Below the pieces are notes generated by a model. The model was not told where the DNA came from. It worked only from the letters and a program-made list of their open reading frames with translations, and made no database searches. Made by a program: the position numbers and the translations under genes. From Candidatus Ornithospirochaeta avicola (GTDB lineage Bacteria; Spirochaetota; Spirochaetia; Sphaerochaetales; Sphaerochaetaceae), in NCBI GenBank assembly GCA_019113245.1, contig DXHU01000019.1:1-64000 (forward strand): 64,000 nt of DNA, given 5' to 3'. Below are positions 330 to 20,646 of the stretch, piece after piece (the stretch's first letter is position 1; each line of letters begins with the position of its first letter).

Positions 330-2884
330 CACTTCTTCCTGCTGTATGGAGTGTTTGCAAGAGGAAGGGAGTACTCAGGCTTTCCTGTATACATATAGTA
401 TGCATTTCGTATTGCAGGAGCTGTAGGAATGGCAGAGAGTTCTCCGATTCCTTTTGCTCCATAGCTGGTTTTCATTTTTTCATCCGGCTCTACGAAGATG
501 CTCTGGATTTCTGGAATGTCAGTGCTCCTGAGAAGTCCAAGAGTACCGAGCTTGCTTTTTACTCTTCCTTTTTCAGTTATGAAGTTCTCTGTAAGGGCAT
601 ACCCCATGCCTGTGACAATACCGCCTTCCATCTGTGCCTCGATTGCAGTGAGATTGATGACAGTTCCTGCATCCGATGCAGATATAATCTTCTTTATTCT
701 TCCCTCGTCATCCAAAATGGCAAGCTGAGCGCTGTAGGAGTAGGCAAGATGGCTTACAGGATGCTCTTTCTCTGTATTGAGGCTGTCTGTTGACGGACTG
801 AATTCAGCTTTGTAGCTTTCGCCCTCAAGGCTTTTTAGCCCGTATTTATCGAGATCCTTCTTCATCTTCAGTGCAGCAAGGCGTACAGCCTCTCCTGTGA
901 ATGCTGTCTGACGGCTTGCTGTGCTTGTCCCGCTGTCAGGCGTTCTGTCTGTATCAGGTTCTTCAACGATAAAAAGAGACGCATCAAGTTCAAGTGCGGC
1001 AGATGCAATCTGCAGACATACAGTCTTAACTCCCTGGCCCATGCATGCGGCGCTTGTCCGTATATGTACCTTGCCGCCCTCTACTGAGAGGATTGCCCGC
1101 CCTGAATCCTTTACTCCCATTCCGATTCCTGCATTCTTCATACCCAGTGCGATACCTTTGTATTTTGCCTTGTAATATTCATCTTTAAGGGCATCAAGGC
1201 ATTTATATGCAGTTGTGTCAGGAGTTGCAATCTGCCCAGAAGGAAGAGCCTGTCCGCTTCTTATGACATTTTTCTCCCTGATTGTAAATGGATCTATTGA
1301 AAGCATATTAGCAGCCTCATCAAGTGCCGCCTCGATGGCAAAGCATGACTGGGTGACTCCAAAGCCGCGGAAAGCTCCATTTGGAGGATTGTTAGTATAG
1401 TATGCAATGCCTACAACAGAGAGGTTCTGGAAATTATAGGGACCTCCTGCATGAGTGCATGCTCTTTGCAATACGGGCCCTCCAAGGGAAGCATATGCTC
1501 CTGTGTCTGTAAGAATGTCTTCTTTCAGCGCAAGAATCTTTCCATCATCGTCAAATGCGAGAGTAAGGTCTATCGACATAGGATGGCGCTTTGGATGAAC
1601 GGCAAGGCTTTCATTTCTTGAGAGCTTTATCTTTACAGGCTGCTTGAGAATATATGCAGAAAGGGCTGCATGGTGCTGCACTGACATATCTTCCTTCCCG
1701 CCAAATCCTCCTCCTACAAGAGCGCTTTTCACATGCACCTTCTCAGGAGGAAGACGAAGCATTCTTGCGCATTCCCTCTGATCGTCATAGATGCTCTGTC
1801 CTCCTGTTATGAGATTCACACCTCCATCCTCATGCGGCCATGCAATTGCACATTCAGTCTCCATGAATGCATGCTCTGTGACTGGAGTCTCAAAATGTCT
1901 TTTTATGACATGAGGAGCACTTTTGATCATGCTTTCGGCATCACCTTTTATTATGTACTCTCTTCGGTACATGTTGCTCTGACCCCAGTAATGAACCTTT
2001 ATATCATCTTTTCTGGCATCTTCAATAGTGTACACACCTTCAAGCTCTTCTGCTTCTATTTTCACAAGAGCCTTTATCTCTTCAAGGCTTTCCTTCCTCT
2101 TTGACACGGCAATTACTAGAGCATCCCCTATATATGAGGTTATGTCTCCTTCTCCAAAGAGGACAGGCCAGTCAAGTGAAAGATGTCCGTGCATGTTGAA
2201 AGGAACATCTTCTTTTCTTATTATGCGTACGCAATCAGGATGCTTTTCAGCTTCTTCTGTATCTATCCTCACGATTTTCGCCCTGGGGTAGGGGGAGCGG
2301 ACTGCTGATGCATAGAGCATTCCTGGAAGGACTATGTCATCAGTATAAAGCCCTTCACCGAGAGCTTTTGCTGCTGCATCTATTCTTATCATCCGGGAGC
2401 CGAGAGAAGCATCATCATCTTTGACCATAGGAAGATTTTCCCTGAAAATTCGGGATGCAAGCAGAATTGCCTTTATGATCTTCACATAGCCTGTACAGCG
2501 GCACAAATTCCCTCTGATTGCTTTCTTCACATCATCTTCTGAAGGATCTGATTTTGAGTCGATGAGGGCCTTTGCGCTCATGATCATGCCGGGTATGCAG
2601 TATCCGCACTGGACAGCACCTGCTTTTGCAAAAGCATAAGAGTAAACCTGCTTTTCCCTTTCTGATAGCCCCTCAATTGTCGTGACGCTCTTTCCTTCAA
2701 GACGGGACAGCTTGAACACGCAGGCCTTCTGGGCCTTTCCATCAATAATTACGGTACATGTTCCGCACGCACCCTCGCTGCAGCCGTCCTTTGTCCCGGT
2801 CAGACGAAGGTCATCTCTCAGGAATGAAAGAAGGCTTTTGTCCTCCTTTATTTCATATTCTATACCGTTTATTCTTACAGCCAT
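329..2884 (-). CDS. Xanthine dehydrogenase-type molybdoenzyme, fused 2Fe-2S and Mo subunits
   Basis: An 851-residue protein of the xanthine oxidase family, expected to hydroxylate a purine or other N-heterocycle in the cytoplasm. Residues 1-80 form a plant-type 2Fe-2S ferredoxin domain (CSEGACGTCT). Residues 80-150 hold the second 2Fe-2S domain (CGYC and LCRCTGY). The remainder is the molybdopterin-binding part with GGGFGGKED, GAFRGFG and, near the C-terminus, GAKGIGEL carrying the expected catalytic Glu. The FAD domain that sits between these modules in XdhA/eukaryotic XDH is missing, and no separate FAD subunit lies in the operon. This layout resembles E. coli XdhD and selenium-dependent purine hydroxylases. 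It is third in a minus-strand operon after the hydrolase and the deaminase. The true substrate cannot be read from the sequence. Confidence 0.88.
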   Translation of the reverse strand: MAVRINGIEYEIKEDKSLLSFLRDDLRLTGTKDGCSEGACGTCTVIIDGKAQKACVFKLSRLEGKSVTTIEGLSEREKQVYSYAFAKAGAVQCGYCIPGMIMSAKALIDSKSDPSEDDVKKAIRGNLCRCTGYVKIIKAILLASRIFRENLPMVKDDDASLGSRMIRIDAAAKALGEGLYTDDIVLPGMLYASAVRSPYPRAKIVRIDTEEAEKHPDCVRIIRKEDVPFNMHGHLSLDWPVLFGEGDITSYIGDALVIAVSKRKESLEEIKALVKIEAEELEGVYTIEDARKDDIKVHYWGQSNMYRREYIIKGDAESMIKSAPHVIKRHFETPVTEHAFMETECAIAWPHEDGGVNLITGGQSIYDDQRECARMLRLPPEKVHVKSALVGGGFGGKEDMSVQHHAALSAYILKQPVKIKLSRNESLAVHPKRHPMSIDLTLAFDDDGKILALKEDILTDTGAYASLGGPVLQRACTHAGGPYNFQNLSVVGIAYYTNNPPNGAFRGFGVTQSCFAIEAALDEAANMLSIDPFTIREKNVIRSGQALPSGQIATPDTTAYKCLDALKDEYYKAKYKGIALGMKNAGIGMGVKDSGRAILSVEGGKVHIRTSAACMGQGVKTVCLQIASAALELDASLFIVEEPDTDRTPDSGTSTASRQTAFTGEAVRLAALKMKKDLDKYGLKSLEGESYKAEFSPSTDSLNTEKEHPVSHLAYSYSAQLAILDDEGRIKKIISASDAGTVINLTAIEAQMEGGIVTGMGYALTENFITEKGRVKSKLGTLGLLRSTDIPEIQSIFVEPDEKMKTSYGAKGIGELSAIPTAPAIRNAYYMYTGKPEYSLPLANTPYSRKK

Positions 2885-10766: not shown

Positions 10767-12569
10767 TTAATTATCCTCTATGCTTCTGATGATGTATGCT
10801 TCATTCTCTTCGTTTTTTGAAAGAGTGATGGAAAGTCTCCTGATTTCATCAGCTTGTTTTATAGTTTTCTCATCTGAGAAGAATGATGTTATTGTATAGT
10901 TTCTTTCTCCGCTGATTGAAGGAAGAAGAAGATGCACCTTCTCTTTTTCTGAGCTTGCTGTCACAAGACATGCCGTTCTGTCATTGTTGTATACAGCAGT
11001 TATCCTCTCATCCCTGTCTTTTTTTATTATCTCAAGGCTTCCGAACTGGAAGAGAGCTCTTTTATCCAGATATTCCTCATTGATGCTTCTTATTTTCATG
11101 CACTCCTCATTGGAAAGAGAGAGTATGTCATCTTCAGAATAAAGAGGAAGCGCAGAAGAGAGACTGCTGCTTTTCAGCACTGCCTGAGGAAATGTGGAGA
11201 TGATTTCATCAGTGTTTTCTGTCATCACAGCTGATGCGCTCTGAATGTAGACAGGTGAAAAATAATCTGCCCTGATTACTATCTCAAGGGATATGAATTT
11301 TCTTGAAAGATCATTGAGAAAACTGTTGAGCGCTCTGAAGTAGTCAAACCTGGCTTTTTCTGTGAGATCAGACAAATCGAGTTCTCTTATGTCCAGTATC
11401 ATCTGCTCAAGAGAGGCATTCTCAATCAAGGCCGAAATCATGCTGAAGAGACTGTCATATGTCTTTTCATCCCTTATGTCCTGCAAAGAACCGATTCTCT
11501 TTGCCTTTGATGCGCTGTCGCTGGAGACTTTCAAGAAAGCAAGTGAGAGCGAGAAAGACAGTTTAGCTTTATGCACGCGCTCTGCGTTTTCCATGAGTCC
11601 TGAAGGAAAGCGCGAAGTGTTTATGTACCAGTCTCCGTATGAAAGGCAGTCTTCTTCTCTTGAACCGTACCAGTAATCAGAAAGACAGAGTCCTTCAAAA
11701 GAAAGATCCTTTGCTTTCTTTATCAGAAGGGCAAGTGTTCTCTCGTCAGTTTTCATTCCCTCCGGAGTGTTTGCATAGAGTTTTCTCATCCCGTCTTTCC
11801 ATCTTCCGCGGAGCATAGCGTTGTACATGAATGACCTGATTCTGTCGTACTCAGAACCTTTTTTCGAGAAGATAAGGACAGTCTCGGGAAGTTCCAGCTC
11901 TCCCTCCAATTCAAAGGATTTGAATACGGATGCAGATACACTCATGCATCTTTCTTTCTTTTCAATGCTTGAAATGCTCTGATTGTACAGCGGAAGAATT
12001 ATGTATGATGTCTCATCATCATGCATTCTGATTATCTGGGACTCGAATGCAAGTGTCTGAGACTCAGAAATGCTGCCTTTTTTCTCATTGTTTCTGTCTA
12101 TGTAGGAAAAAGAAGACGCGGGGATATTGAATGAAGAGGAGACAAGCAATGAGGCATGCTCTTTTCTGCTGCTGTTTATAATCATTCTTTTGGAAATCGC
12201 ATCCAGGGACGGAAAGACTGTGTATATTATCTCTGCTTTAATGCCTTCTTTAATCTCTCCCTCGATGACAAGGCTCTCGCTTTCAGTGTCAGCCATGACT
12301 GCCTGAGGATAATAATATTTCCTCATTCTCCTGATGCCTGCAGAAAGGCTGTGGCTTGTGTAGGAAAAACGGCAGCTTCCATCAAAGATGACAGGCAGAT
12401 TTATTTCTTCTGCGTAGCTGTTGTTTCTGTCTGTTTTCTTCAGGCTTTCGTTATCGGCTTTCTTTCCTGCATAGAGTGTTTTAAGCTCTCCCTCATCTGT
12501 GCGGAAAAATGAGTATGTATAATTTCTTGTACTCAGTATGAAAGTACAGTCTTTTGTTACATTAATCAT
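10767..12569 (-). CDS. GH36-like protein with altered catalytic positions
   Basis: About 600 residues arranged like family GH36 alpha-galactosidases: an N-terminal beta-sandwich (1-250), then a barrel opening with RGRWKDGMRKLYANT. The stretch LCLSDYWYGS (294-303) followed by GDWYINTSRFPSGL sits where GH36 has the VLDDGWFG...GDW...FPNGL motif. The nucleophile motif KWDMNR is replaced by ILDIREL (Asp393 possibly retained), and the acid/base motif SDNTDA by TENTDE (Glu451). The cysteine/glycine substrate loop is also lost. It may be an inactive or re-purposed relative. The start at 12569 lies 6 nt after a TATAAT box with no ribosome site; an in-frame start at 12635 would overlap the divergent gene. 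Confidence 0.6.
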   Translation of the reverse strand: MINVTKDCTFILSTRNYTYSFFRTDEGELKTLYAGKKADNESLKKTDRNNSYAEEINLPVIFDGSCRFSYTSHSLSAGIRRMRKYYYPQAVMADTESESLVIEGEIKEGIKAEIIYTVFPSLDAISKRMIINSSRKEHASLLVSSSFNIPASSFSYIDRNNEKKGSISESQTLAFESQIIRMHDDETSYIILPLYNQSISSIEKKERCMSVSASVFKSFELEGELELPETVLIFSKKGSEYDRIRSFMYNAMLRGRWKDGMRKLYANTPEGMKTDERTLALLIKKAKDLSFEGLCLSDYWYGSREEDCLSYGDWYINTSRFPSGLMENAERVHKAKLSFSLSLAFLKVSSDSASKAKRIGSLQDIRDEKTYDSLFSMISALIENASLEQMILDIRELDLSDLTEKARFDYFRALNSFLNDLSRKFISLEIVIRADYFSPVYIQSASAVMTENTDEIISTFPQAVLKSSSLSSALPLYSEDDILSLSNEECMKIRSINEEYLDKRALFQFGSLEIIKKDRDERITAVYNNDRTACLVTASSEKEKVHLLLPSISGERNYTITSFFSDEKTIKQADEIRRLSITLSKNEENEAYIIRSIEDN

Positions 12570-12585
12570 GAATTCATTATATAAT
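12557..12585. promoter_or_regulatory. Divergent promoter with overlapping -10 boxes
   Basis: The palindrome ATTATATAAT (12576-12585) contains TATAAT on both strands. The plus-strand box (12580-12585) has TTACAT 17 bp upstream (12557-12562). The minus-strand box is 12581-12576. Each lies 6 nt from an ATG: 12592 on the plus strand and 12569 on the minus strand. Polymerase could serve only one direction at a time. Confidence 0.55.
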
Positions 12586-12591
12586 ACTTTC

Positions 12592-13743
12592 ATGGATATA
12601 AGAAGACTTCCTCTCTGGGAAGGTAGAAATGCCACATATATGGCTAACGATTACATAACAGCGGTTATCGAAGATCAGGGTTCGGTAATGCTGGAGCTTT
12701 CCTCTCAGTCTGTGGGAGGTGCGAGGATAAATGCACTCAGCATGCCTTATTTCAGAGGATTCTCATCTGGGGTTCTTTCTGATGAGAATGCATCATGGTA
12801 CCAGAACAAGCAGACGCTTTATCAGGCGGGAGGAAGCTATTTCACGTTTCCTTATCCGAGTGAGGATATAATCACGAGCAACAATACATACTGGACTGTC
12901 AGGAAGTACGGGACAGAGGAAGAGTATGGCGGTGTATGGCTGCTTTCTGAGATGAAGAGCAGGATGGAATCGTGTCATTACCGTCTTGAACGCCTGGATT
13001 TTCTTCTTCCTTCCCATCCTGCCATCTACAGTGCGATAAAGGCGACAAATCTCTCTCCTGATCAGGCTCTTGAGACCTCTCCGTCATTCAACAGCATGCT
13101 CTCATCTCCTTTTTTGGAAACAGGGTGTGTCATCGACTGTAATGCAAGAAGTTTCTCTGCCTACCAGAAGGCAAGGAGGGAGCTTGCGAGAAACCGTTAT
13201 ATGGCATCGCGCATCTTTGATGATCTGAAGCATGCTCCGCTTGCAAGCGGGGGAATCTGCGATGCATCCTATCTTCCGCCACCCACCGGTACATATGATT
13301 ATATAATCGGAAAGACAAATGAGAGTCAGGATGTGTCATATCTTCTGATGATGAATCCCAGAACTCAGCAGATGTTCATAAATTTCGCGCCTTCCTCATG
13401 TTTCCCGAATGTTGCGATAACACAGAACTATCTTGGGCGTTTCGATTCCCCGTGGGCACTATGGGATGGAGGGGTAAGTCAGGTATATTCTCTTTCTCTT
13501 GGATTCAACTGGGGGCCGAAGGGCACCAGAAATCTCACAATCCCTCCTCAAAGCAGCTTTGTTTTCTATTTTGCATCAGCATACTGCCCTTATGACAATC
13601 CGAGAATGGGACTTGGTTATTCCACAAAAGAAGTACAGGATGACGGATTCTTCTTCAAAAGGACAAAGAGCAGCCTCTTTGTCCCCTGTGATACAAGATT
13701 CAGAATAATGAAGAAGCTTTCTTCCATCGTTTTCGGCACCTAG
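12592..13743 (+). CDS. Galactose-mutarotase-like fold protein, function unknown
   Basis: A 383-residue protein. The opening (ITAVIEDQGSVMLELSSQSVGGARINAL) and the all-beta, aromatic-rich composition resemble the aldose-1-epimerase-like superfamily that binds sugars, but I do not recognise the specific family and see no clear catalytic His/Glu pair. No signal peptide. It is transcribed divergently from the GH36-like gene from a shared promoter, which supports a carbohydrate-related role. There is no Shine-Dalgarno; the ATG lies 6 nt after TATAAT. Its 3' end overlaps the convergent dehydrogenase gene by 4 bp. Confidence 0.5.
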   Translation: MDIRRLPLWEGRNATYMANDYITAVIEDQGSVMLELSSQSVGGARINALSMPYFRGFSSGVLSDENASWYQNKQTLYQAGGSYFTFPYPSEDIITSNNTYWTVRKYGTEEEYGGVWLLSEMKSRMESCHYRLERLDFLLPSHPAIYSAIKATNLSPDQALETSPSFNSMLSSPFLETGCVIDCNARSFSAYQKARRELARNRYMASRIFDDLKHAPLASGGICDASYLPPPTGTYDYIIGKTNESQDVSYLLMMNPRTQQMFINFAPSSCFPNVAITQNYLGRFDSPWALWDGGVSQVYSLSLGFNWGPKGTRNLTIPPQSSFVFYFASAYCPYDNPRMGLGYSTKEVQDDGFFFKRTKSSLFVPCDTRFRIMKKLSSIVFGT

Positions 13744-14873
13744 AAGGGCCAGTCATCCTCAAGGCCATACCGCGCTGTGAGCGTCTTTATGACCTTCTGA
13801 AGGCTTTCTGGAACAGGGCATCCATACTGGCTTCTGAGTGTTCTTGCGATGTACTCCTTCTCTCCCGCAGTATATATTCTTTCTTCTCCGGGGGCTTTTC
13901 TGCTGTTTCTGAGATCAGAAAGTATTGCTGAACTTATTTTTTTGAACACAGCAGCGCCAAGGAAGAATTCAGGGTTTACCGCGATGAAGAAATGTCCGAG
14001 AGGATAGGGAATATCCTTTCCCTTCTCATCCTTTCCTCCAAGAGCTTTCATGAAAGATCCATCCTGGAGGGCCGCAGAGAGTATTTCCACCACTGTGGCA
14101 TATCCATAGCCCTTGTAGCCTCCAGTTTCCTCTCCAAGCCCTCCAAGAGGTGTGAGCGCGGCCTTGCCGAGAGTCAGGTCCCTGAGAACACCTTCTGTGT
14201 CTGTCCTGGTCTTTCCCTCCTCATCGATGACCCATCCAGGGGGAAGTTCCTTTCCGGCCCTGCCGTATACTTCAATCTTTCCTCTCTGGCTGACGCTGGT
14301 TGCACAGTCAAGCACGAACGGGAACGGATCATTGGTGGGAAGAGCTATTGTAAGCGGATTTGTGCCAAGCATGTTCTCTACCCCGAAAGTGGGGGCAATT
14401 GAAGGGCGGGCATTTGTTCCTGTGATTCCTATCATGTCTTCATCAGTTGCCATCGTGGCATAATATCCTGCAATTCCGTAATGGTTGCTGTTGCGCACAG
14501 CAGTCATTGCAATGCCATGCTTTTTAGCTTTCTCTATTGCCATCTTCATGGCCTTGAAAGATACCACATGCCCCATGCCGTTGTGCCCGTCAAGCACGCA
14601 TGTTGTTTCAGTTTCCTTTACTATTTCTATTTCTGTGACAGGATTCATTATTCCTTTGTCGATTCTGTCGATGTAAATCGGCTTGAGTCTTCCGATTCCG
14701 TGGCTGTCTATGCCTCTCTTGTCCGATTCAATAAGAACATCAGCAATTATCTCACTGTCTGCCTTCGGAACGCCGGCAGCCATCAAAGCTTCCTTCATGA
14801 AGCGCTCAAGACGGTCAAAATCAACAAAGACACAGTCCTTATATGCATCAAGGAATTTTTCTTTTTCAGTCAT
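13740..14873 (-). CDS. Malate/L-lactate dehydrogenase family (Ldh/MdlDH type)
   Basis: A 377-residue NAD(P)-dependent 2-hydroxyacid dehydrogenase of the type-2 malate/(S)-lactate family, distinct from the Rossmann-fold MDH. Motifs: DSHGIGRLKPIYIDRI near residue 55, SNHYGIAGYYA, and LGTNPLTIALP with DCATSVSQRGKIE. Length is a little above usual. The ureidoglycolate and 2,3-diketogulonate dehydrogenases share this fold, so the substrate is open; with malic enzyme and OadGAB nearby, malate/oxaloacetate is attractive. Its AAGGAG ribosome site lies inside a hairpin (14880-14908). Confidence 0.82.
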   Translation of the reverse strand: MTEKEKFLDAYKDCVFVDFDRLERFMKEALMAAGVPKADSEIIADVLIESDKRGIDSHGIGRLKPIYIDRIDKGIMNPVTEIEIVKETETTCVLDGHNGMGHVVSFKAMKMAIEKAKKHGIAMTAVRNSNHYGIAGYYATMATDEDMIGITGTNARPSIAPTFGVENMLGTNPLTIALPTNDPFPFVLDCATSVSQRGKIEVYGRAGKELPPGWVIDEEGKTRTDTEGVLRDLTLGKAALTPLGGLGEETGGYKGYGYATVVEILSAALQDGSFMKALGGKDEKGKDIPYPLGHFFIAVNPEFFLGAAVFKKISSAILSDLRNSRKAPGEERIYTAGEKEYIARTLRSQYGCPVPESLQKVIKTLTARYGLEDDWPF

Positions 14874-14879
14874 AAAAAA

Positions 14880-14908
14880 CTCTCCTTAATACTCAGTATA
14901 AAGGAGAG
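14880..14908 (-). promoter_or_regulatory. Inverted repeat: terminator-like hairpin containing a ribosome site
   Basis: A 29-bp inverted repeat centred on 14894 with a single mismatched pair. Read on the minus strand it is a hairpin directly followed by TTTTTT and then the ATG of the dehydrogenase. The 3' arm is AAGGAGAG, the dehydrogenase ribosome site. It could end transcripts of the outer-membrane gene, mask the ribosome site, or both. Confidence 0.65.
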
Positions 14909-14929
14909 ATGCCATCTTGCAAGGAAAAC

Positions 14930-15499
14930 TCAGTAATAATAGTAGGGCAAATAGGCTGGACTGCTGTCCCCGAAACGGAAGATCATTGAGAAGTAGAAGG
15001 ATCCGTAGTAGTTGAATTCTGTGTCCCTGCTTTCGTATATGCTTGCTATGAAATAATTCACCATTCCTGTCTCTACTGCCATGCTCTTCCAGTCATCGAA
15101 GTAGAAAGAGTAGGATAGATCCACGCCTCCTCCAACACCAATAGGATAATTATCGTCATCTTTGATTCTTGAAGAGATGAATACTGAGGGTCCCAGCGTG
15201 AAATTAATAGCAGACCTGTCGTTTATCCAGTAATCTCCTCCTATTCCGACAATTGCTCCGACAGAAAGATATTCTGCTTTTGGAAGAGAGAATGTTATGT
15301 CGCTTCTTGTTGCAAGTCCAAGACTGGACTTTCCTCCTGAGATGCTTCCCCCGGCTGTTGTCTTTGTGAATATTCCCATCTCCACATTTCCGGAAATTGT
15401 GGAATATGCTACATCTGCTCCAACTGATGTCATCGTGACTGCAGAAAGAGAGATGACTGATGAGAAAACAAGTAGGATGAGGATAAAAAGTTTTTTCAT
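14930..15499 (-). CDS. Putative outer-membrane beta-barrel protein
   Basis: A 189-residue exported protein. The N-terminus is a classic signal peptide (MKKLFILILLVFSSVISLSA). The rest is rich in alternating hydrophobic and polar residues, Gly, Ser and Tyr, as in small porin-like barrels, and ends in YLPYYYY. I do not recognise a family. It has a short AAAGG ribosome site provided at or just beyond the IscB element boundary. Before that insertion it probably directly followed the ABC exporter genes. Confidence 0.55.
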   Translation of the reverse strand: MKKLFILILLVFSSVISLSAVTMTSVGADVAYSTISGNVEMGIFTKTTAGGSISGGKSSLGLATRSDITFSLPKAEYLSVGAIVGIGGDYWINDRSAINFTLGPSVFISSRIKDDDNYPIGVGGGVDLSYSFYFDDWKSMAVETGMVNYFIASIYESRDTEFNYYGSFYFSMIFRFGDSSPAYLPYYYY

Positions 15500-15518
15500 G
15501 AAACCTTTGGCGGGGAAA

Positions 15519-15539
15519 CCTTCAGCCTTGTGCTGAAGG
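15519..15539 (-). repeat. Subterminal hairpin at the IscB element end
   Basis: CCTTCAGC and GCTGAAGG form a perfect 8-bp stem with a 5-nt loop, overlapping the last codons and stop of iscB. Position and shape suit the hairpin recognised at IS200/IS605-type ends; it may also act as a weak terminator. Confidence 0.6.
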
Positions 15540-16775
15540 ATGAACCGCCTCCTCCTTGTAGTAGAGTCTTGTATCTGTATGCTCGACGAGCATGATGTTT
15601 CTGTAATGGATTGACGGATGGACTCGGGTGCCGTCAGGCTTCCTGATGTCGAAATAGCCCGAGCTTCTCCTTCCGTGTATCAAGCAGAGCTGTCCTTTGA
15701 ACATGACCTTGTCATTCAGGCAAAACCCTCCTATGAGACGCGGAGCCTGGTTGGCCTTCCATCTGTTCCCCTTGAGCTTGTTCGTCTTGTTTACCTGCCT
15801 GTTGTGACAGCGGAGCTTTAAGATTCTGAAGGACTCGTCTGTTCTGTCGATATCGAAGTTCCCGGCGATACAGAAGGCATCGTTGACATGCGTCTTCTCC
15901 AGTTTGAGCTTGTTCCTGTTCCAGTTCGTGATGTACCCATAGGTTTGCTCGATTGGGATGTCCGGATGAGCCGTATTGAGCTTGTCGAGGAGAAACCAGC
16001 GCATCGTGGACATATCCGTTGCACTCTTGAAACCTCTGTTTTCTGGGAAGGGAATGTCGAGCGGTCTCTTCCCGCTGTGGTGGTCCGTATGGCATTTCTC
16101 ACAGAGCGTAATGAGGTTCGCTGGTCTGTCGGAACCGCCATCCCTGCGCTGGATGATGTGGTGGACCTCAAGGTGCTCATGAGAGCCGCAGGACTGGCAT
16201 GTGAACCCGTCACGTGCTTTCACATATGCCTTGACGTTCGCGTAGCCGAGCTGCTCGCCTTCCTGATACTGCTTGCCTCCGATATCCTCATTCTTGATCT
16301 TCTGAATATCAAAAGAGGCCGTCTCGACGACAATCTTCGAGACTGGCAGGATAGAGCAGACATCGTCGATGACGTTGACATGTGCTCGAACCTTGGCTTC
16401 CATCGTCGGCGTGAGCCAGCCTTCTGGCCTTCTCCTGTTGTCAAAGCGAGGCTTGCGGTGGCGAAGACGGCTTCTGCGTGCACGTCTCGACTGCCGACGT
16501 GCAGTCACAAGCTGAGGAACATCGTCACGCAATGTCATTTCGGCATTGAAAAGCTCCTCCTTCTCGGTAGAGGCTGAGAGCCCGACATGCTTCGAACCCG
16601 CATCGACGCCAAGCGTCACATTCTTGATTCCTTCGCTCGTCTCTATGAGCATACTGATGGTGAAAGGGGTCCGTTTCACCACTTCGGCCTCTCCGGCTTT
16701 GATCAGGTGTCTTGCCCTGCATGGAGTGGTGGGCATCAGTGGTCTGCCATCTCTTGAAAGCACAAATACCTTCAA
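15522..16775 (-). CDS. iscB: IscB RNA-guided HNH/RuvC nuclease
   Basis: A 417-residue IscB, the ancestor-type relative of Cas9. Counting from an alternative ATG at 16823 (433 residues): PLMP domain at about 28-45; RuvC-I LGVDAGSKHVG (Asp74); an arginine-rich bridge helix 107-130; RuvC-II IVVETASFD (Glu167); HNH with CQSC...HH...CEKC (His221/222, two Cys pairs); RuvC-III KTHVNDAF (His312, Asp315); then the TAM-interacting domain. All catalytic residues are intact. I prefer the TTG start at 16775 because AGGAG lies 7 nt upstream and the protein then begins LKVFVLSRDGRPLMP, as IscB proteins do. No REC lobe and no CRISPR array, so it is not Cas9. Confidence 0.93.
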   Translation of the reverse strand: MKVFVLSRDGRPLMPTTPCRARHLIKAGEAEVVKRTPFTISMLIETSEGIKNVTLGVDAGSKHVGLSASTEKEELFNAEMTLRDDVPQLVTARRQSRRARRSRLRHRKPRFDNRRRPEGWLTPTMEAKVRAHVNVIDDVCSILPVSKIVVETASFDIQKIKNEDIGGKQYQEGEQLGYANVKAYVKARDGFTCQSCGSHEHLEVHHIIQRRDGGSDRPANLITLCEKCHTDHHSGKRPLDIPFPENRGFKSATDMSTMRWFLLDKLNTAHPDIPIEQTYGYITNWNRNKLKLEKTHVNDAFCIAGNFDIDRTDESFRILKLRCHNRQVNKTNKLKGNRWKANQAPRLIGGFCLNDKVMFKGQLCLIHGRRSSGYFDIRKPDGTRVHPSIHYRNIMLVEHTDTRLYYKEEAVHPSAQG

Positions 16776-17075
16776 TTCTCTTCTCCTTGCGTATGCAATT
16801 CGCCTCTTAGAAGGCCTCCCCATACGCCGGGGTCGCCGGGTCTTCCTCCCGGCCGTCCCGAGCCGATGTTATCCGGCGGTTTGATGCATACGGCACTGCT
16901 CCTACCTGTTAGAGCTGTTTAACCGCATGCCGCAGAGTCCGGAGCTGAAACGACACTCCGGAGTGCCTATGTATTCGCCGGTAACGTGGTTCAGAGGCCG
17001 AAACCTCATCACCTGGGCTGATCAAGCAAGGCTCTTGCAAGCCTACGGGTTTATCCTGTCAGGTGCTTGACGATA
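16776..17075 (-). ncRNA. Omega-RNA (HEARO-type) for IscB
   Basis: The stretch between the ABC exporter stop and iscB has no gene but strong pairing on the minus strand. Helices include GTCAAGC with GCTTGAT around an inner GGCT...AGCC hairpin, GAGG/CCTC, the palindrome ACTCCGGAGT, a long-range CCGGCG (16981-16976) with CGCCGG (16878-16873), and GCCGGG/CCCGGC near the 3' end. IscB omega-RNAs lie 5' of the gene and take their guide from the flank, which here is the 3' end of the exporter gene. The 3' boundary is approximate. Confidence 0.8.
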
Positions 17076-18920
17076 TCACTCCAACTCAAATAGACCTTTA
17101 TAAAGATTATAATACAGCCCATGATATTTTAACAGGTCATCATGAGTGCCGCGTTCTATGATCTTGCCGTGCTCTAAAACCATGATTGCGTTGCTGTTCC
17201 TAACTGTGCTCAGGCGGTGGGCAATGACAAATACAGTCCTTCCTTCCATCAGACGGTCCATGGCTTTTTCTATCAGATCCTCAGTCCTTGTATCGATGTT
17301 GCTTGTGGCCTCATCAAGAATGAGGACAGGAGGATTCAGTATGCTGGCCCTTGCGATGGCTATAAGCTGACGTTGGCCGCTTGACAAATTTGCTCCGTCG
17401 TTATGGATCATTGTGTCATACCCGTCTGGAAGACGTGTTATGAAGCTGTGCGCATTTGCTATCTTTGCAGCATTTACCACATCCTCTTCACTTGCATCAG
17501 GGCATGCATATCTTATGTTGTCCCTTATTGTTCCGCTAAAGAGGTGGGTATCCTGAAGGACCATGGAAAGGGTCTTTCTGAGCGCGCTCTTTTCAATTCT
17601 TCTTATATCGATACCATCATATGTTATCTCACCCTCATCTATGTCATAGAAACGGTTTATAAGATTCGTAATTGTTGTCTTGCCCGCTCCTGTTGAGCCG
17701 ACAAATGCTATTTTCTCTCCCGGCTTTGCATAAAGGCTTATGTCATTAAGTACTTTTGTTTTCTTGTCATAGGAGAATGAGACATTGTTGAATCTGACAT
17801 CGCCTTTGAGCTCAATGAGATTTTCTCCGTCTTTGAATGCATAGCATCCTGTGGCTTTTCCTGTTTCCACCAATAGGCCGTCATCCTTTTTCAGTACATT
17901 TACAAGGCTCACTTTTCCTTCGTTTATCTCACTGATTTCATCCATGGCCTCGAATATTCTCTCGCAGCCTGCAAGTGAGGAGAGCAGAAAATTGGACTGC
18001 TGTGTGAACTGGTTTATAGGTCCTGTAGTCTGGCGCACGAAGACAAGATAGGTCGAGAGGCTTCCTAGGTCCATCAGAGAGCGAAGCGTCATGAAACCCC
18101 CAAGAAGCGCGACAATTGCGTAATTGAAATATGATATGCTCACGACAGCGGGAATCATCGTCAGTGCATAGCCCTGCGCTTTTTCTCCCTCCCTTTCAAG
18201 GGCCTTGTTCCTCACGTCAAAGTCCTTGATGCTTTCACTTTCGTGATTGAATACCTTTATAACTTTTTCTCCTTCAATCATCTCCTGGACAAAGCCGTCA
18301 AGATCAGCAAGTTTTTTCTGCTGACGGCTGTAATAAAGCTTGCTCCTTTTTCCGCTGTAACGTATGTAAAGGAACATCGCGATATAGCTTAAAAGGACAA
18401 TGAGTGAGAGTGAGAAGTTGAGGACGAACACTATTATCAGGGTTCCAGTTATCTGCACTCCGCTTTTTATTGTAGATGAGAAGCTGTTGTTGAGCGCATC
18501 TGAAATTGTATCTATGTCGTTTGTGAAATAGCTCATTATGTCTCCGCTCTGGTGTGAGTCGAAATACTTGAGCGGAAGGGTCTCAATATGAGCGAAAAGA
18601 TCATTTCTTATATCAAAGACGACTTTCTGGGCAAGTCTTGCCATGATCTGGGAATAGAGCAGGGCAGAGATTGCTCCGCAGGCAAAGATTGATCCTGTGA
18701 CTATCACCCCTTTTATCAGACTTTGCCAGCTTCCTGTTTCCAAAAGGGAGTTGACGATGGGCTTTATCATATATGTGCCCATTATGTTGCACACATCGCT
18801 TATGATTACAAGAATGGCCACAAGTGCAAGCAGGCCTTTGTAGTGTCCCAGGTATGAAAATAGTTTTTTCAGTGTGTAGCGGAGGTTCTTTGCACGCTTG
18901 ACTGAGTATATTCTAGCCAT
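17076..18920 (-). CDS. ABC exporter half-transporter, canonical ATPase site
   Basis: A 614-residue type-IV ABC exporter subunit: six predicted membrane helices (about 20-330), then an ATPase with Walker A GSTGAGKTT, Q-loop VLQDTHLFSG, signature LSSGQRQ and Walker B VLILDEATSNID with catalytic Glu. An insert of about 40 residues precedes the ATPase. It overlaps the partner gene by 8 bp; together they look like an LmrCD/MdlAB-type heterodimer for drugs or lipids. The IscB element sits immediately after its stop codon without changing the protein. Confidence 0.9.
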   Translation of the reverse strand: MARIYSVKRAKNLRYTLKKLFSYLGHYKGLLALVAILVIISDVCNIMGTYMIKPIVNSLLETGSWQSLIKGVIVTGSIFACGAISALLYSQIMARLAQKVVFDIRNDLFAHIETLPLKYFDSHQSGDIMSYFTNDIDTISDALNNSFSSTIKSGVQITGTLIIVFVLNFSLSLIVLLSYIAMFLYIRYSGKRSKLYYSRQQKKLADLDGFVQEMIEGEKVIKVFNHESESIKDFDVRNKALEREGEKAQGYALTMIPAVVSISYFNYAIVALLGGFMTLRSLMDLGSLSTYLVFVRQTTGPINQFTQQSNFLLSSLAGCERIFEAMDEISEINEGKVSLVNVLKKDDGLLVETGKATGCYAFKDGENLIELKGDVRFNNVSFSYDKKTKVLNDISLYAKPGEKIAFVGSTGAGKTTITNLINRFYDIDEGEITYDGIDIRRIEKSALRKTLSMVLQDTHLFSGTIRDNIRYACPDASEEDVVNAAKIANAHSFITRLPDGYDTMIHNDGANLSSGQRQLIAIARASILNPPVLILDEATSNIDTRTEDLIEKAMDRLMEGRTVFVIAHRLSTVRNSNAIMVLEHGKIIERGTHDDLLKYHGLYYNLYKGLFELE

Positions 18921-20646
18921 TGAAACCTCCCTTCAGCTGTGATGAGTAAATCTCGCGGTAGATGGAGGAATTCCTGATCAGCTCATCATGATTACCGATA
19001 TCTGCAATCCTTCCGTTGTCAAGGACCACGATCATGTCTGAATTCATTACAGTTGAGATTCTCTGTGAGATGAAGATCTTTGTAGCATTCTCTATCTGCT
19101 TAAGAATTGCCCTTATAGTCATCTCTGTTTTTGTATCCACTGCAGAAAGAGAATCATCAAAGATTATAATGCGTGGATTCTTTATAAGGGCTCTGGCAAT
19201 GGCAAGCCTCTGTTTCTGTCCTCCTGATACATTGACTCCTCCCTGTTCAAGATCAGTTGAGAGATCCTGCGGAAAACCCATCACGAAAGAGTATGCATCA
19301 GCCTTCTTCAAGGCATTTATTATCTCTTCATCACTGGCATCCATCTTTCCCCAGCGTATGTTGTCCCTTATGCTTCCGGAAAAGAGAGTGTTCTTCTGCA
19401 GGACTGTAACGATGTTTTCCCTCAGTGCTGTGATATCATATTCCCTGATATCCCTTCCTCCTATCTTTATTGATCCCTTGCTGACATCATAAAGCCTGCT
19501 TATAAGCTGCACGAGAGTGCTCTTGCCGCTTCCTGTCTGGCCGAGAATGCCGACAGTGCTTCCTTCTTCTATTTTTAGATTGATATCTGAAAGAGTGTAT
19601 TCCTTTGCACTTTCAGAGTATTTGAAATAGACATCTTCAAACGCAATGTCATATCTGTCTATATTCTTTTCTGCATCATCTCTGTTCTTTATTGTGCTTT
19701 CTTCCTTCAGCACTTCCATGATTCTGTGGCTTGATGTTAGACTTCGCGAAAGAAGCAGGAAGACATTTGAGAACATGACAAGGGAGTTCAGCACCTGCAA
19801 TACATAGCTTAAAAAGCCGGTCAGTGCGCCGACAGTGAGACTTCCTGAGAGTATCATCCGGCCTCCAAAGAGCATTATCATCACGATTGTGATATACATC
19901 ACGCTCTGGAATGCAGGGAGGTTGAGAACTGCAATGCGTGTTGTGTTGACCGTTATGTCGCGAAGTTTGTCATTTGCAGCATAGAATTTCTTCTTCTCCT
20001 CATCTTCAGTGACAAAGGCTTTTACTGTCCTTATGGCCCTTAGATTCTCCTCGACAACCTCATTCAGCTTGTCAAGAGCTTTCTGTGTTATCTCATAGCG
20101 CGGTGCTATTGTCTTTATTATGAAGAAGAGCATGAGGCCAAGGGCAGGTGCGACTACAAGGAATATAAGCGCAAGGTCATCGTTCATCTGGAATGAGAAG
20201 AAGATGCCAAGAAAGAGCATTACCGGGCTTCTGACAAGAGGCCTGAGTCCTCCGATTATCGCGTTCTGGATTATTGTTGCATCACTTGTGAGTCTTGTAA
20301 TCAGGCTTCCAGATGAGAATCTGTCTATGTTCGAAAATGAGAAACTCTGTATCCTTCTGTATTCTGCTTCTCTGATGTTGGCACCAAGACCGTAGGCGGC
20401 GCGCGATGAAAAGCGTGCGTAGGTGAGGCCTGTAAACAGGGCAAGAAGAGCACAGATTATCATCAGCAGTCCGTCACGGAGCATGAATGAGACATCAGCT
20501 TTGGCAACTCCGTCATCAATAAGCGATGCCATGAGCATGGGGATTACAAGCTCAAAGCAGGTTTCGATGAAGATCAGAAAAATTGCAATGTACAAATCTT
20601 TTCTGTATTTTCCGAGATAGGAGAAAATATATCTAAGGTCTCTCAT
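18913..20646 (-). CDS. ABC exporter half-transporter, degenerate ATPase site
   Basis: A 577-residue partner of the gene at 17076-18920. It has an N-terminal six-helix domain, Walker A GQTGSGKST, signature VSGGQKQR and Walker B IIIFDDSLSAVD, where Asp replaces the catalytic Glu. One degenerate site is usual in heterodimeric exporters. There is no Shine-Dalgarno before the ATG (a run of A instead), and the predicted transcript start is about 5 nt upstream, so the mRNA is leaderless or nearly so. Confidence 0.9.
   Translation of the reverse strand: MRDLRYIFSYLGKYRKDLYIAIFLIFIETCFELVIPMLMASLIDDGVAKADVSFMLRDGLLMIICALLALFTGLTYARFSSRAAYGLGANIREAEYRRIQSFSFSNIDRFSSGSLITRLTSDATIIQNAIIGGLRPLVRSPVMLFLGIFFSFQMNDDLALIFLVVAPALGLMLFFIIKTIAPRYEITQKALDKLNEVVEENLRAIRTVKAFVTEDEEKKKFYAANDKLRDITVNTTRIAVLNLPAFQSVMYITIVMIMLFGGRMILSGSLTVGALTGFLSYVLQVLNSLVMFSNVFLLLSRSLTSSHRIMEVLKEESTIKNRDDAEKNIDRYDIAFEDVYFKYSESAKEYTLSDINLKIEEGSTVGILGQTGSGKSTLVQLISRLYDVSKGSIKIGGRDIREYDITALRENIVTVLQKNTLFSGSIRDNIRWGKMDASDEEIINALKKADAYSFVMGFPQDLSTDLEQGGVNVSGGQKQRLAIARALIKNPRIIIFDDSLSAVDTKTEMTIRAILKQIENATKIFISQRISTVMNSDMIVVLDNGRIADIGNHDELIRNSSIYREIYSSQLKGGFNG

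What the first reader, a model, noticed from the sequence alone, without database searches (positions are those of the whole stretch)
15500..17075. Intact IscB/omega-RNA element without a transposase
The protein keeps both nuclease centres (RuvC Asp74/Glu167/His312/Asp315 and HNH His221/222 with two Cys pairs), and about 300 nt upstream form several nested helices of the omega-RNA (HEARO) type. This is a compact, apparently live RNA-guided nuclease in a spirochaete, a lineage in which few IscB systems have been studied. No TnpA is nearby, so it is either mobilised in trans or domesticated.
Basis: partly seen in the sequence, partly recalled or inferred. Interest (0 to 1): 0.8.

Follow-up and report, generated by a model that had tools for sequence, protein, structure and literature searches.

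The report
Mobile IscB element, borrowed transposase
This is a genuine, intact, recently mobile RNA-guided "jumping gene" (an IscB element) in a gut-type spirochaete; it has no transposase of its own but carries the end signals of resident IS605 elements, and its close relatives mostly land exactly between a gene's ribosome-binding site and its start codon.

Summary
The 433-aa ORF (15522-16823, minus strand) is an IscB (NCBIfam guided_IscB, 344 bits; cut-off 175) with all six catalytic residues, and an omega-RNA (Rfam HEARO, 111.6 bits; cut-off 83) lies at 16835-17071. Related ORFs evolve under purifying selection (dN/dS about 0.1-0.2), and 28 of 52 omega-RNA pairs covary across 18 relatives. 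The nearest relative (93% DNA identity) has the empty site: the element is exactly 1572 bp (15500-17071), inserted between GAGTTGGAGTGATATC (inferred guide) and ATGAAA (an OgeuIscB-type TAM and the next gene's start codon). Reciprocally, that relative's own IscB element is absent here. No Y1 transposase was found in this 97%-complete genome, but both element ends match those of TnpA-bearing IS605 elements in related genomes, down to a 21-nt foot whose bases track the flanking motif. In this spirochaete clade the elements dock at start codons: 18 of 25 junctions, against 8.5% (all ATGRA sites) or 27% (non-coding). Eight non-spirochaete IscB loci lack Shine-Dalgarno-like flanks. It is a well-documented new member of a known kind with an unusual target choice. 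Transcription, cleavage and transposition are untested.

The parts
15500..17071 (-). whole IscB element, 1572 bp (2-bp ambiguity: TC/GA is shared, so 15502-17073 is equally possible by alignment alone)
   Evidence: Empty orthologous site in G034: window 13501-15501 = L124 3004-5004 and 17072-19000 = L124 5003-6931, 93% identity. The terminal GTCAA start is shared by most of 50 copies, with close variants in the rest.
16835..17071 (-). omega-RNA (HEARO) scaffold
   Evidence: Rfam RF02033 111.6 bits, model 1-211; 28 of 52 predicted pairs with compensatory changes in 18 relatives
17072..17087 (-). inferred 16-nt guide GAGTTGGAGTGATATC, outside the element (last codons and stop of the ABC transporter gene plus TATC)
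   Evidence: Directly 5' of HEARO position 1. Only exact match in the genome is this site; the next best have 3 mismatches. The 16-17-nt guide length is that of OgeuIscB (PMC9640706).
15494..15499 (-). ATGAAA, presumptive TAM and TnpA target motif, also the start codon of the next gene
   Evidence: Directly abuts the guide sequence in the empty site; ATGRA/ATGAC in 27 of 27 resolved copies, which were selected by requiring a tail followed by ATG or a near variant; fits NNRR of OgeuIscB (PMC9640706)
15522..16823 (-). iscB, 433 aa from ATG; probable start TTG at 16775 (417 aa)
   Evidence: NCBIfam guided_IscB 344 bits; catalytic residues; dN/dS 0.22 against nearest relative
15500..15546 (-). right end (TnpA-side end): hairpin 15519-15539 that overlaps the iscB stop codon, then a 21-nt foot GGTTTCCCCGCCAAAGGTTTC
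   Evidence: Same architecture and 21-nt foot as the tnpA-side end of 7 resident Y1 IS loci; foot bases covary with the TAM
17076..18920 (-). host gene upstream: ABC exporter subunit; its end supplies the guide
   Evidence: Pfam ABC_membrane and ABC_tran; 97% identical orthologue in G034 with no insertion after it
14930..15499 (-). host gene downstream (189 aa, no Pfam family); its ATG abuts the element
   Evidence: ORF list; no Pfam match; lies in the 93% identical flank with the same ATG in the empty site

Best explanation
A non-autonomous IS200/IS605-type transposable element that encodes IscB and its omega-RNA. Shown by sequence: the element inserted between a 16-nt flank and an ATGAAA motif; the omega-RNA starts at the element's first base, so its 5' guide is the host flank; excision would restore guide-matched DNA next to the TAM, while the occupied site has GTCAAG there and no TAM. 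Inferred: a Y1 TnpA supplied in trans by resident IS605 elements (now, or in a recent ancestor or donor) peels the element out as single strand and pastes it 5' of an ATGRA motif. IscB loaded with omega-RNA then cuts any copy of the locus that has lost the element, and recombination with an occupied copy restores it, so the element is retained and can home into empty alleles. The TAM motif contains ATG, and in this clade the insertions fall mostly between Shine-Dalgarno sequence and start codon, so the guides are largely copies of host ribosome-binding sites.
For: Protein and RNA family matches; catalytic residues; covariation 28/52 pairs; dN/dS 0.1-0.22 between diverged copies. Exact empty site in the closest relative and the reciprocal one. 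50 HEARO copies in the family, with different 5' flanks and a common start. Two near-identical copies at two loci of G056, and a G034 element 91% identical to those of G041 and G057 although the G034/G041 host ABC gene is only about 72-76% identical over its main alignable parts. Guide unique in the genome. Ends shared with IS605: RE 34 blast hits to Y1 loci against 3.0 in shuffles, LE 30 against 3.1; same 21-nt foot, with GGTTTT beside ATAAA in the IS605 copies and GGTTTC beside ATGAA here, and a foot base that tracks TAM position 4 (C in 5/5 ATGG cases against 1/19 ATGA cases, p 1.4e-4). Start-codon docking: 18/25 against 8.5% or 27% background, p 1.5e-14 and 2.7e-6; left flanks SD-like, p 4e-9.
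Against: No Y1 transposase was found in the genome itself, so this copy may now be stranded; repeated IS elements are often missing from draft assemblies, so absence is weak evidence. No transcript, cleavage or excision was tested. No convincing sigma-70 promoter ahead of the RNA; it may rely on read-through from the ABC operon. The copies compared are related, so foot/TAM covariation rests on about two independent switches within IscB elements plus the IS605 comparison, and 1 of 19 ATGA cases departs from it. Similarity of ends is short (about 30 nt at 83-87% identity), and single shuffled matches reach similar E-values; the argument rests on their number and position.
Confidence: 0.88

Rival explanations
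1. Domesticated IscB: the element is immobile and kept at this locus because the RNA-guided nuclease serves the host (regulation or defence).
For: No transposase detected in the genome; intact frame and active sites; single copy here.
Against: Absent from the orthologous site in the nearest relative, which carries a different IscB (57.7% identical) elsewhere. Relatives hold it at unrelated loci in variable copy number. The only exact target of the guide is its own flank. Transposon ends are intact.
Confidence: 0.04
2. Stranded transposon: a recent insertion, intact but no longer able to move because no TnpA remains, and so on its way to decay.
For: No Y1_Tnp in the 97%-complete assembly. Deleted and broken relatives exist in several genomes, for example G047.
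Against: Assembly gaps could hide a repeated IS. G034, 93% identical in DNA, has three Y1 genes, one of them with matching ends. Compatible with the best explanation as its later stage.
Confidence: 0.3
3. Non-functional remnant or chance resemblance: the ORF and folded RNA are not an IscB system.
For: No expression data.
Against: E 8e-103 for the protein, 3.6e-22 for the RNA, all catalytic residues, purifying selection, covariation.
Confidence: 0.03
4. Mobilised by a non-Y1 enzyme (for example a serine recombinase or an RNA-guided copying route) rather than by TnpA.
For: No Y1 in the genome.
Against: Hairpin ends with guide-like foot bases that track the flanking motif, no target duplication, and termini shared with Y1 IS605 elements are the marks of Y1 TnpA.
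Confidence: 0.06

Closest known systems
OgeuIscB and its omega-RNA (human gut metagenome; PDB 7XHT, 7UTN, 8CSZ)
   Same: PLMP-RuvC-HNH order, catalytic residues aligned, HEARO-type omega-RNA upstream on the same strand, 5' guide of about 16 nt, 3' TAM compatible with NNRR
   Different: Shorter (417-433 against 496 aa); TAM inferred from insertion sites as ATGRA, not measured; C-terminal TAM-interacting region not matched by sequence beyond about residue 347
HEARO RNA (Rfam RF02033) elements
   Same: Full-length model match above the gathering score; RNA starts at the element's end
   Different: Element ends, empty site and target motif are defined here; several relatives are RNA-only, without iscB
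IS605 elements with TnpA and TnpB in related genomes (L149, L150)
   Same: Both termini: GTCAAC-hairpin at one end; TTCATCC-hairpin with 21-nt foot at the other
   Different: Carry tnpA and tnpB instead of iscB; flanking motif ATAAA (target TTTAT) instead of ATGAA (TTCAT)
IsrB (DtIsrB and others; PMC9581776)
   Same: HNH-less relative guided by a similar RNA; reported TAMs NTGA, NTG and NTGG resemble ATGRA
   Different: Nickase without the HNH domain; here HNH is intact

Membership tests
IscB (OMEGA RNA-guided nuclease) | IscB protein profile with PLMP motif and split RuvC around HNH | tested here: met
   NCBIfam guided_IscB 344 bits over cut-off 175; PLMP at residue 28
IscB (OMEGA RNA-guided nuclease) | catalytic residues of RuvC and HNH present | tested here: met
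   D74, E167, H312, D315, H221/222, aligned with IscB structures
IscB (OMEGA RNA-guided nuclease) | omega-RNA upstream, same strand | tested here: met
   RF02033 at 16835-17071, 111.6 bits; covariation
IscB (OMEGA RNA-guided nuclease) | guide taken from the flank of the element; target plus TAM in the empty site | tested here: met
   Empty site in G034 joins the guide sequence (one mismatch there, position 13 from the TAM) to ATGAAA
IscB (OMEGA RNA-guided nuclease) | RNA-guided double-strand cleavage | not testable with these tools
   needs biochemistry
IscB (OMEGA RNA-guided nuclease) | WED/TAM-interacting C-terminal domain | tested here: inconclusive
   AlphaFold2 model low overall (pLDDT 58) with a more confident beta-rich stretch at about residues 350-400; best Foldseek matches are IscB structures, but with low TM-scores
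IS200/IS605 transposable element | precise insertion 5' of a short motif without target duplication | tested here: met
   net insertion of exactly 1572 bp, flanks contiguous in the empty site; reciprocal 1658-bp case
IS200/IS605 transposable element | subterminal hairpins recognised by Y1 TnpA | tested here: inconclusive
   similar hairpins, 21-nt foot and terminus as Y1 IS605 elements of related genomes; recognition by TnpA itself could not be tested
IS200/IS605 transposable element | encodes Y1 TnpA | tested here: not met
   no Y1_Tnp in element or genome; hence called a non-autonomous derivative, not an autonomous IS
Domesticated OMEGA nuclease | same locus and guide conserved between species | tested here: not met
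   empty site in the closest relative; 50 copies with different flanks

The most novel reading that the evidence does not exclude
In this spirochaete clade IscB elements have shifted from an ATAAA-type target, as in the resident IS605, to ATGRA by changing bases in the end guide of the transposon. They therefore land exactly between a host gene's Shine-Dalgarno sequence and its start codon, with the start codon serving as TAM and the ribosome-binding site as omega-RNA guide. Transposase target choice and nuclease TAM change together.
Probability: 0.6. Interest if true: 0.6.

Novelty: new member of a known kind. Interest (0 to 1): 0.45.

Why it matters
The locus gives the pieces needed to test how IscB keeps a transposon in place: an occupied and an empty allele in close relatives, a reciprocal pair, an inferred guide and TAM, and a candidate trans-acting TnpA. 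The clade-wide start-codon docking, with guides copied from ribosome-binding sites, is a target choice I did not find described in the papers searched (the founding papers were not available), and eight non-spirochaete IscB loci do not show SD-like flanks. The foot-base/TAM tracking suggests that the transposon end and the nuclease's TAM requirement evolve together. It also shows RNA-only copies (about 355-420 bp, with a guide but no nuclease gene).

Tried and rejected
(1) That the element's right end supplies a replacement Shine-Dalgarno sequence to the gene it displaces: anti-SD energies of 27 right ends do not differ from random positions (p 0.38); only some subfamilies (ends like GCGGAGG and AAAGAGG) look that way. 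Rejected as a general rule. (2) Domestication: rejected by empty sites. (3) That TnpB copies of this genome share the IscB ends, which would point to a resident relative: no good match. (4) AlphaFold2 model for checking the C-terminal domain: low confidence, little used. (5) sigma-70 promoter ahead of the omega-RNA: none convincing. (7) The founding ISC and OMEGA papers (Kapitonov 2016; Altae-Tran 2021) are not in the library, so their statements on target motifs could not be checked; from memory, HEARO elements were reported next to ATGA/GTGA, which would make the motif itself already known. (8) Papers on IscB in spirochaetes: none among the six papers that hold both words, judged by title and abstract.

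Full report
What was checked. The protein matches NCBIfam guided_IscB with 344 bits (cut-off 175), Pfam RRXRR and HNH, and IscB chains in the PDB. All six nuclease residues and the two Cys pairs are at the stated positions. The RNA is a full-length HEARO match at 16835-17071 with 111.6 bits. A correction: profile and relatives start at about residue 17-19, where a TTG at 16775 follows AAGGAG, so the likely protein is 417 aa (MKVFVLSRDGRPLMPTT...).

Element boundaries from an empty site. Genome G034 of the same genus has the ABC transporter upstream of the element at 97% protein identity. Its locus (L124) aligns with window 13501-15501 and 17072-19000 at 93% without a gap between them. The insertion is a net 1572 bp. 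On the minus strand the empty site reads ...GAGCTGGAGTGATATC ATGAAAAAACTT..., and the occupied site reads ...GAGTTGGAGTGATATC GTCAAG...[element]...GGTTTC ATGAAAAAACTT.... Two bases (TC) are shared, so the ends are certain to within 2 bp; the GTCAA-type start common to the other copies favours 15500-17071. The reciprocal test works as well: G034's own IscB element (1658 bp; protein 57.7% identical) is absent from the corresponding place in this genome. The two sister genomes therefore carry independent insertions.

Guide and TAM. The 16 nt outside the omega-RNA's first base are GAGTTGGAGTGATATC. OgeuIscB uses guides of about 16-17 nt and a 3' NNRR TAM (PMC9640706). In the empty allele the guide is followed by ATGAAA, which fits; in the occupied allele it is followed by GTCAAG, which does not have purines at both positions 3 and 4. 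So the element should be immune and the empty allele sensitive (inference). The G034 empty site differs from the guide at one base, 13 from the TAM. The guide has no other exact match in the genome; the next best have three mismatches.

Family history. Within the family, 21 of 139 genomes from 3 of 22 genera have HEARO; in an even sample of the phylum only 10 of 393 genomes from 2 of 168 genera do. Fifty copies were compared; their 5' flanks differ while the element start is common. Some genomes have RNA-only copies of about 355-420 bp, or copies with N- and C-terminal IscB scraps. G056 has two practically identical copies at different loci. IscB genes of G034 and G041 are 91% identical in DNA while the two genomes' ABC genes align at only about 72-76% over their main parts, which points to horizontal transfer. 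dN/dS between diverged copies is 0.1-0.22. Covariation supports the RNA: 28 of 52 pairs show changes on both sides in 18 relatives (RNAalifold's own structure on a MAFFT alignment).

Who moves it. No Y1 transposase domain was found in this genome, although most genomes of the genus have one and TnpB-like genes are present here. The left terminus of many IscB elements (GTCAACGACC-hairpin; GTCAAGCACC in the window copy) resembles the tnpB-side terminus of IS605 elements in G045 and G049, base 1 for base 1. Its right end, TTCATCC-hairpin-GGTTTC plus 15 nt, resembles the tnpA-side end of Y1 elements in G034, G035, G056, G047, G015, G045 and G049, where the hairpin is also followed by a foot of exactly 21 nt. 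In those IS605 elements the foot begins GGTTTT and the flanking motif is ATAAA; in the IscB elements it begins [AG]GTNTC beside ATGA and [AG]GTNCC beside ATGG (18 of 19 and 5 of 5; Fisher p 1.4e-4, not corrected for relatedness; three copies without a recognisable foot were left out). From general knowledge of IS200/IS605, target choice by TnpA is set by base pairing between the foot and the target, so this is what trans-mobilisation by such a TnpA predicts. Blast hits of the ends to Y1 loci number 34 and 30 against about 3 in dinucleotide shuffles; the shuffles destroy hairpins, so they are a partial control, and single shuffled matches reach similar E-values.

Start-codon docking. In 27 copies with a resolved right end, the flank is ATG in all, then A or G, then A or C. 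These 27 were picked by tail patterns followed by an ATG-like motif, so the 'ATG in all' is partly by construction; at least one further copy (G035:C27) abuts an IS605 end instead. In 18 of 25 scorable cases that ATG opens a gene by a fixed rule (long frame, in-frame stop within 90 nt upstream), against 8.5% of all ATGRA sites and 27% of non-coding ATGRA sites in the host part of the window; this test does not depend on how the ATG was picked. The left flanks, that is the guides, are strongly Shine-Dalgarno-like (mean duplex energy -6.6 against -2.1 for random sites, p 4e-9). Eight HEARO-bearing IscB loci from archaea, cyanobacteria and Desulfobacter show no such flank (energies 1.7 to -3.1), so this looks specific to the clade; that comparison is small. 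Survival bias against insertions inside genes cannot by itself explain it, since the non-coding background was used as well, but a longer preferred motif or other selection could.

Mechanism and limits. Shown by sequence: identity, ends, insertion, guide/TAM geometry, mobility in the recent past, selection on both parts, similar ends to TnpA elements. Inferred: TnpA in trans, cleavage of empty alleles, recopying by recombination. The retention model is the published one for IS200/605 nucleases, as summarised in PMC11870625 for TnpB. Not tested: expression, cutting, excision. A draft assembly with no Y1 gene cannot show that none exists.

Verdict. The finding is real and its 'mobilised in trans' reading is the better one. 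It is a member of a known kind; the unusual part is the start-codon target and the foot/TAM tracking, which can be tested at the bench in laboratory E. coli.

Noticed in passing
L072:2551-2910, L044, L074, L078, L086: RNA-only HEARO elements of about 355-422 bp with both ends and a host-derived guide but no iscB: mini-elements that would need IscB and TnpA in trans.
   Followed up: partly
L073 (G035:C27:3554-3777 and just downstream): An RNA-only copy whose right flank is not ATG but ATAAGACATACCGCCAG, the end of a resident IS605-type element in reverse; the two elements abut.
   Followed up: no
L126 (G077:C55), 831-2527 minus strand: An IscB with a (shortened, 119 aa) Y1 transposase frame directly downstream in another genus of the family; possibly a contig from another organism.
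   Followed up: partly
G000:C13, C10, C21, C12: Four to five TnpB-like genes in a genome without any detected Y1 transposase: TnpB too may be orphaned here.
   Followed up: no
window 15519-15539: The iscB stop codon lies inside the transposon-end hairpin, so the end of the coding sequence is constrained twice.
   Followed up: no
window 10767-12635 (-) and 12538-13743 (+): Two long divergent ORFs overlap by about 100 bp at their starts; the GTG start of the first is probably called too early.
   Followed up: no
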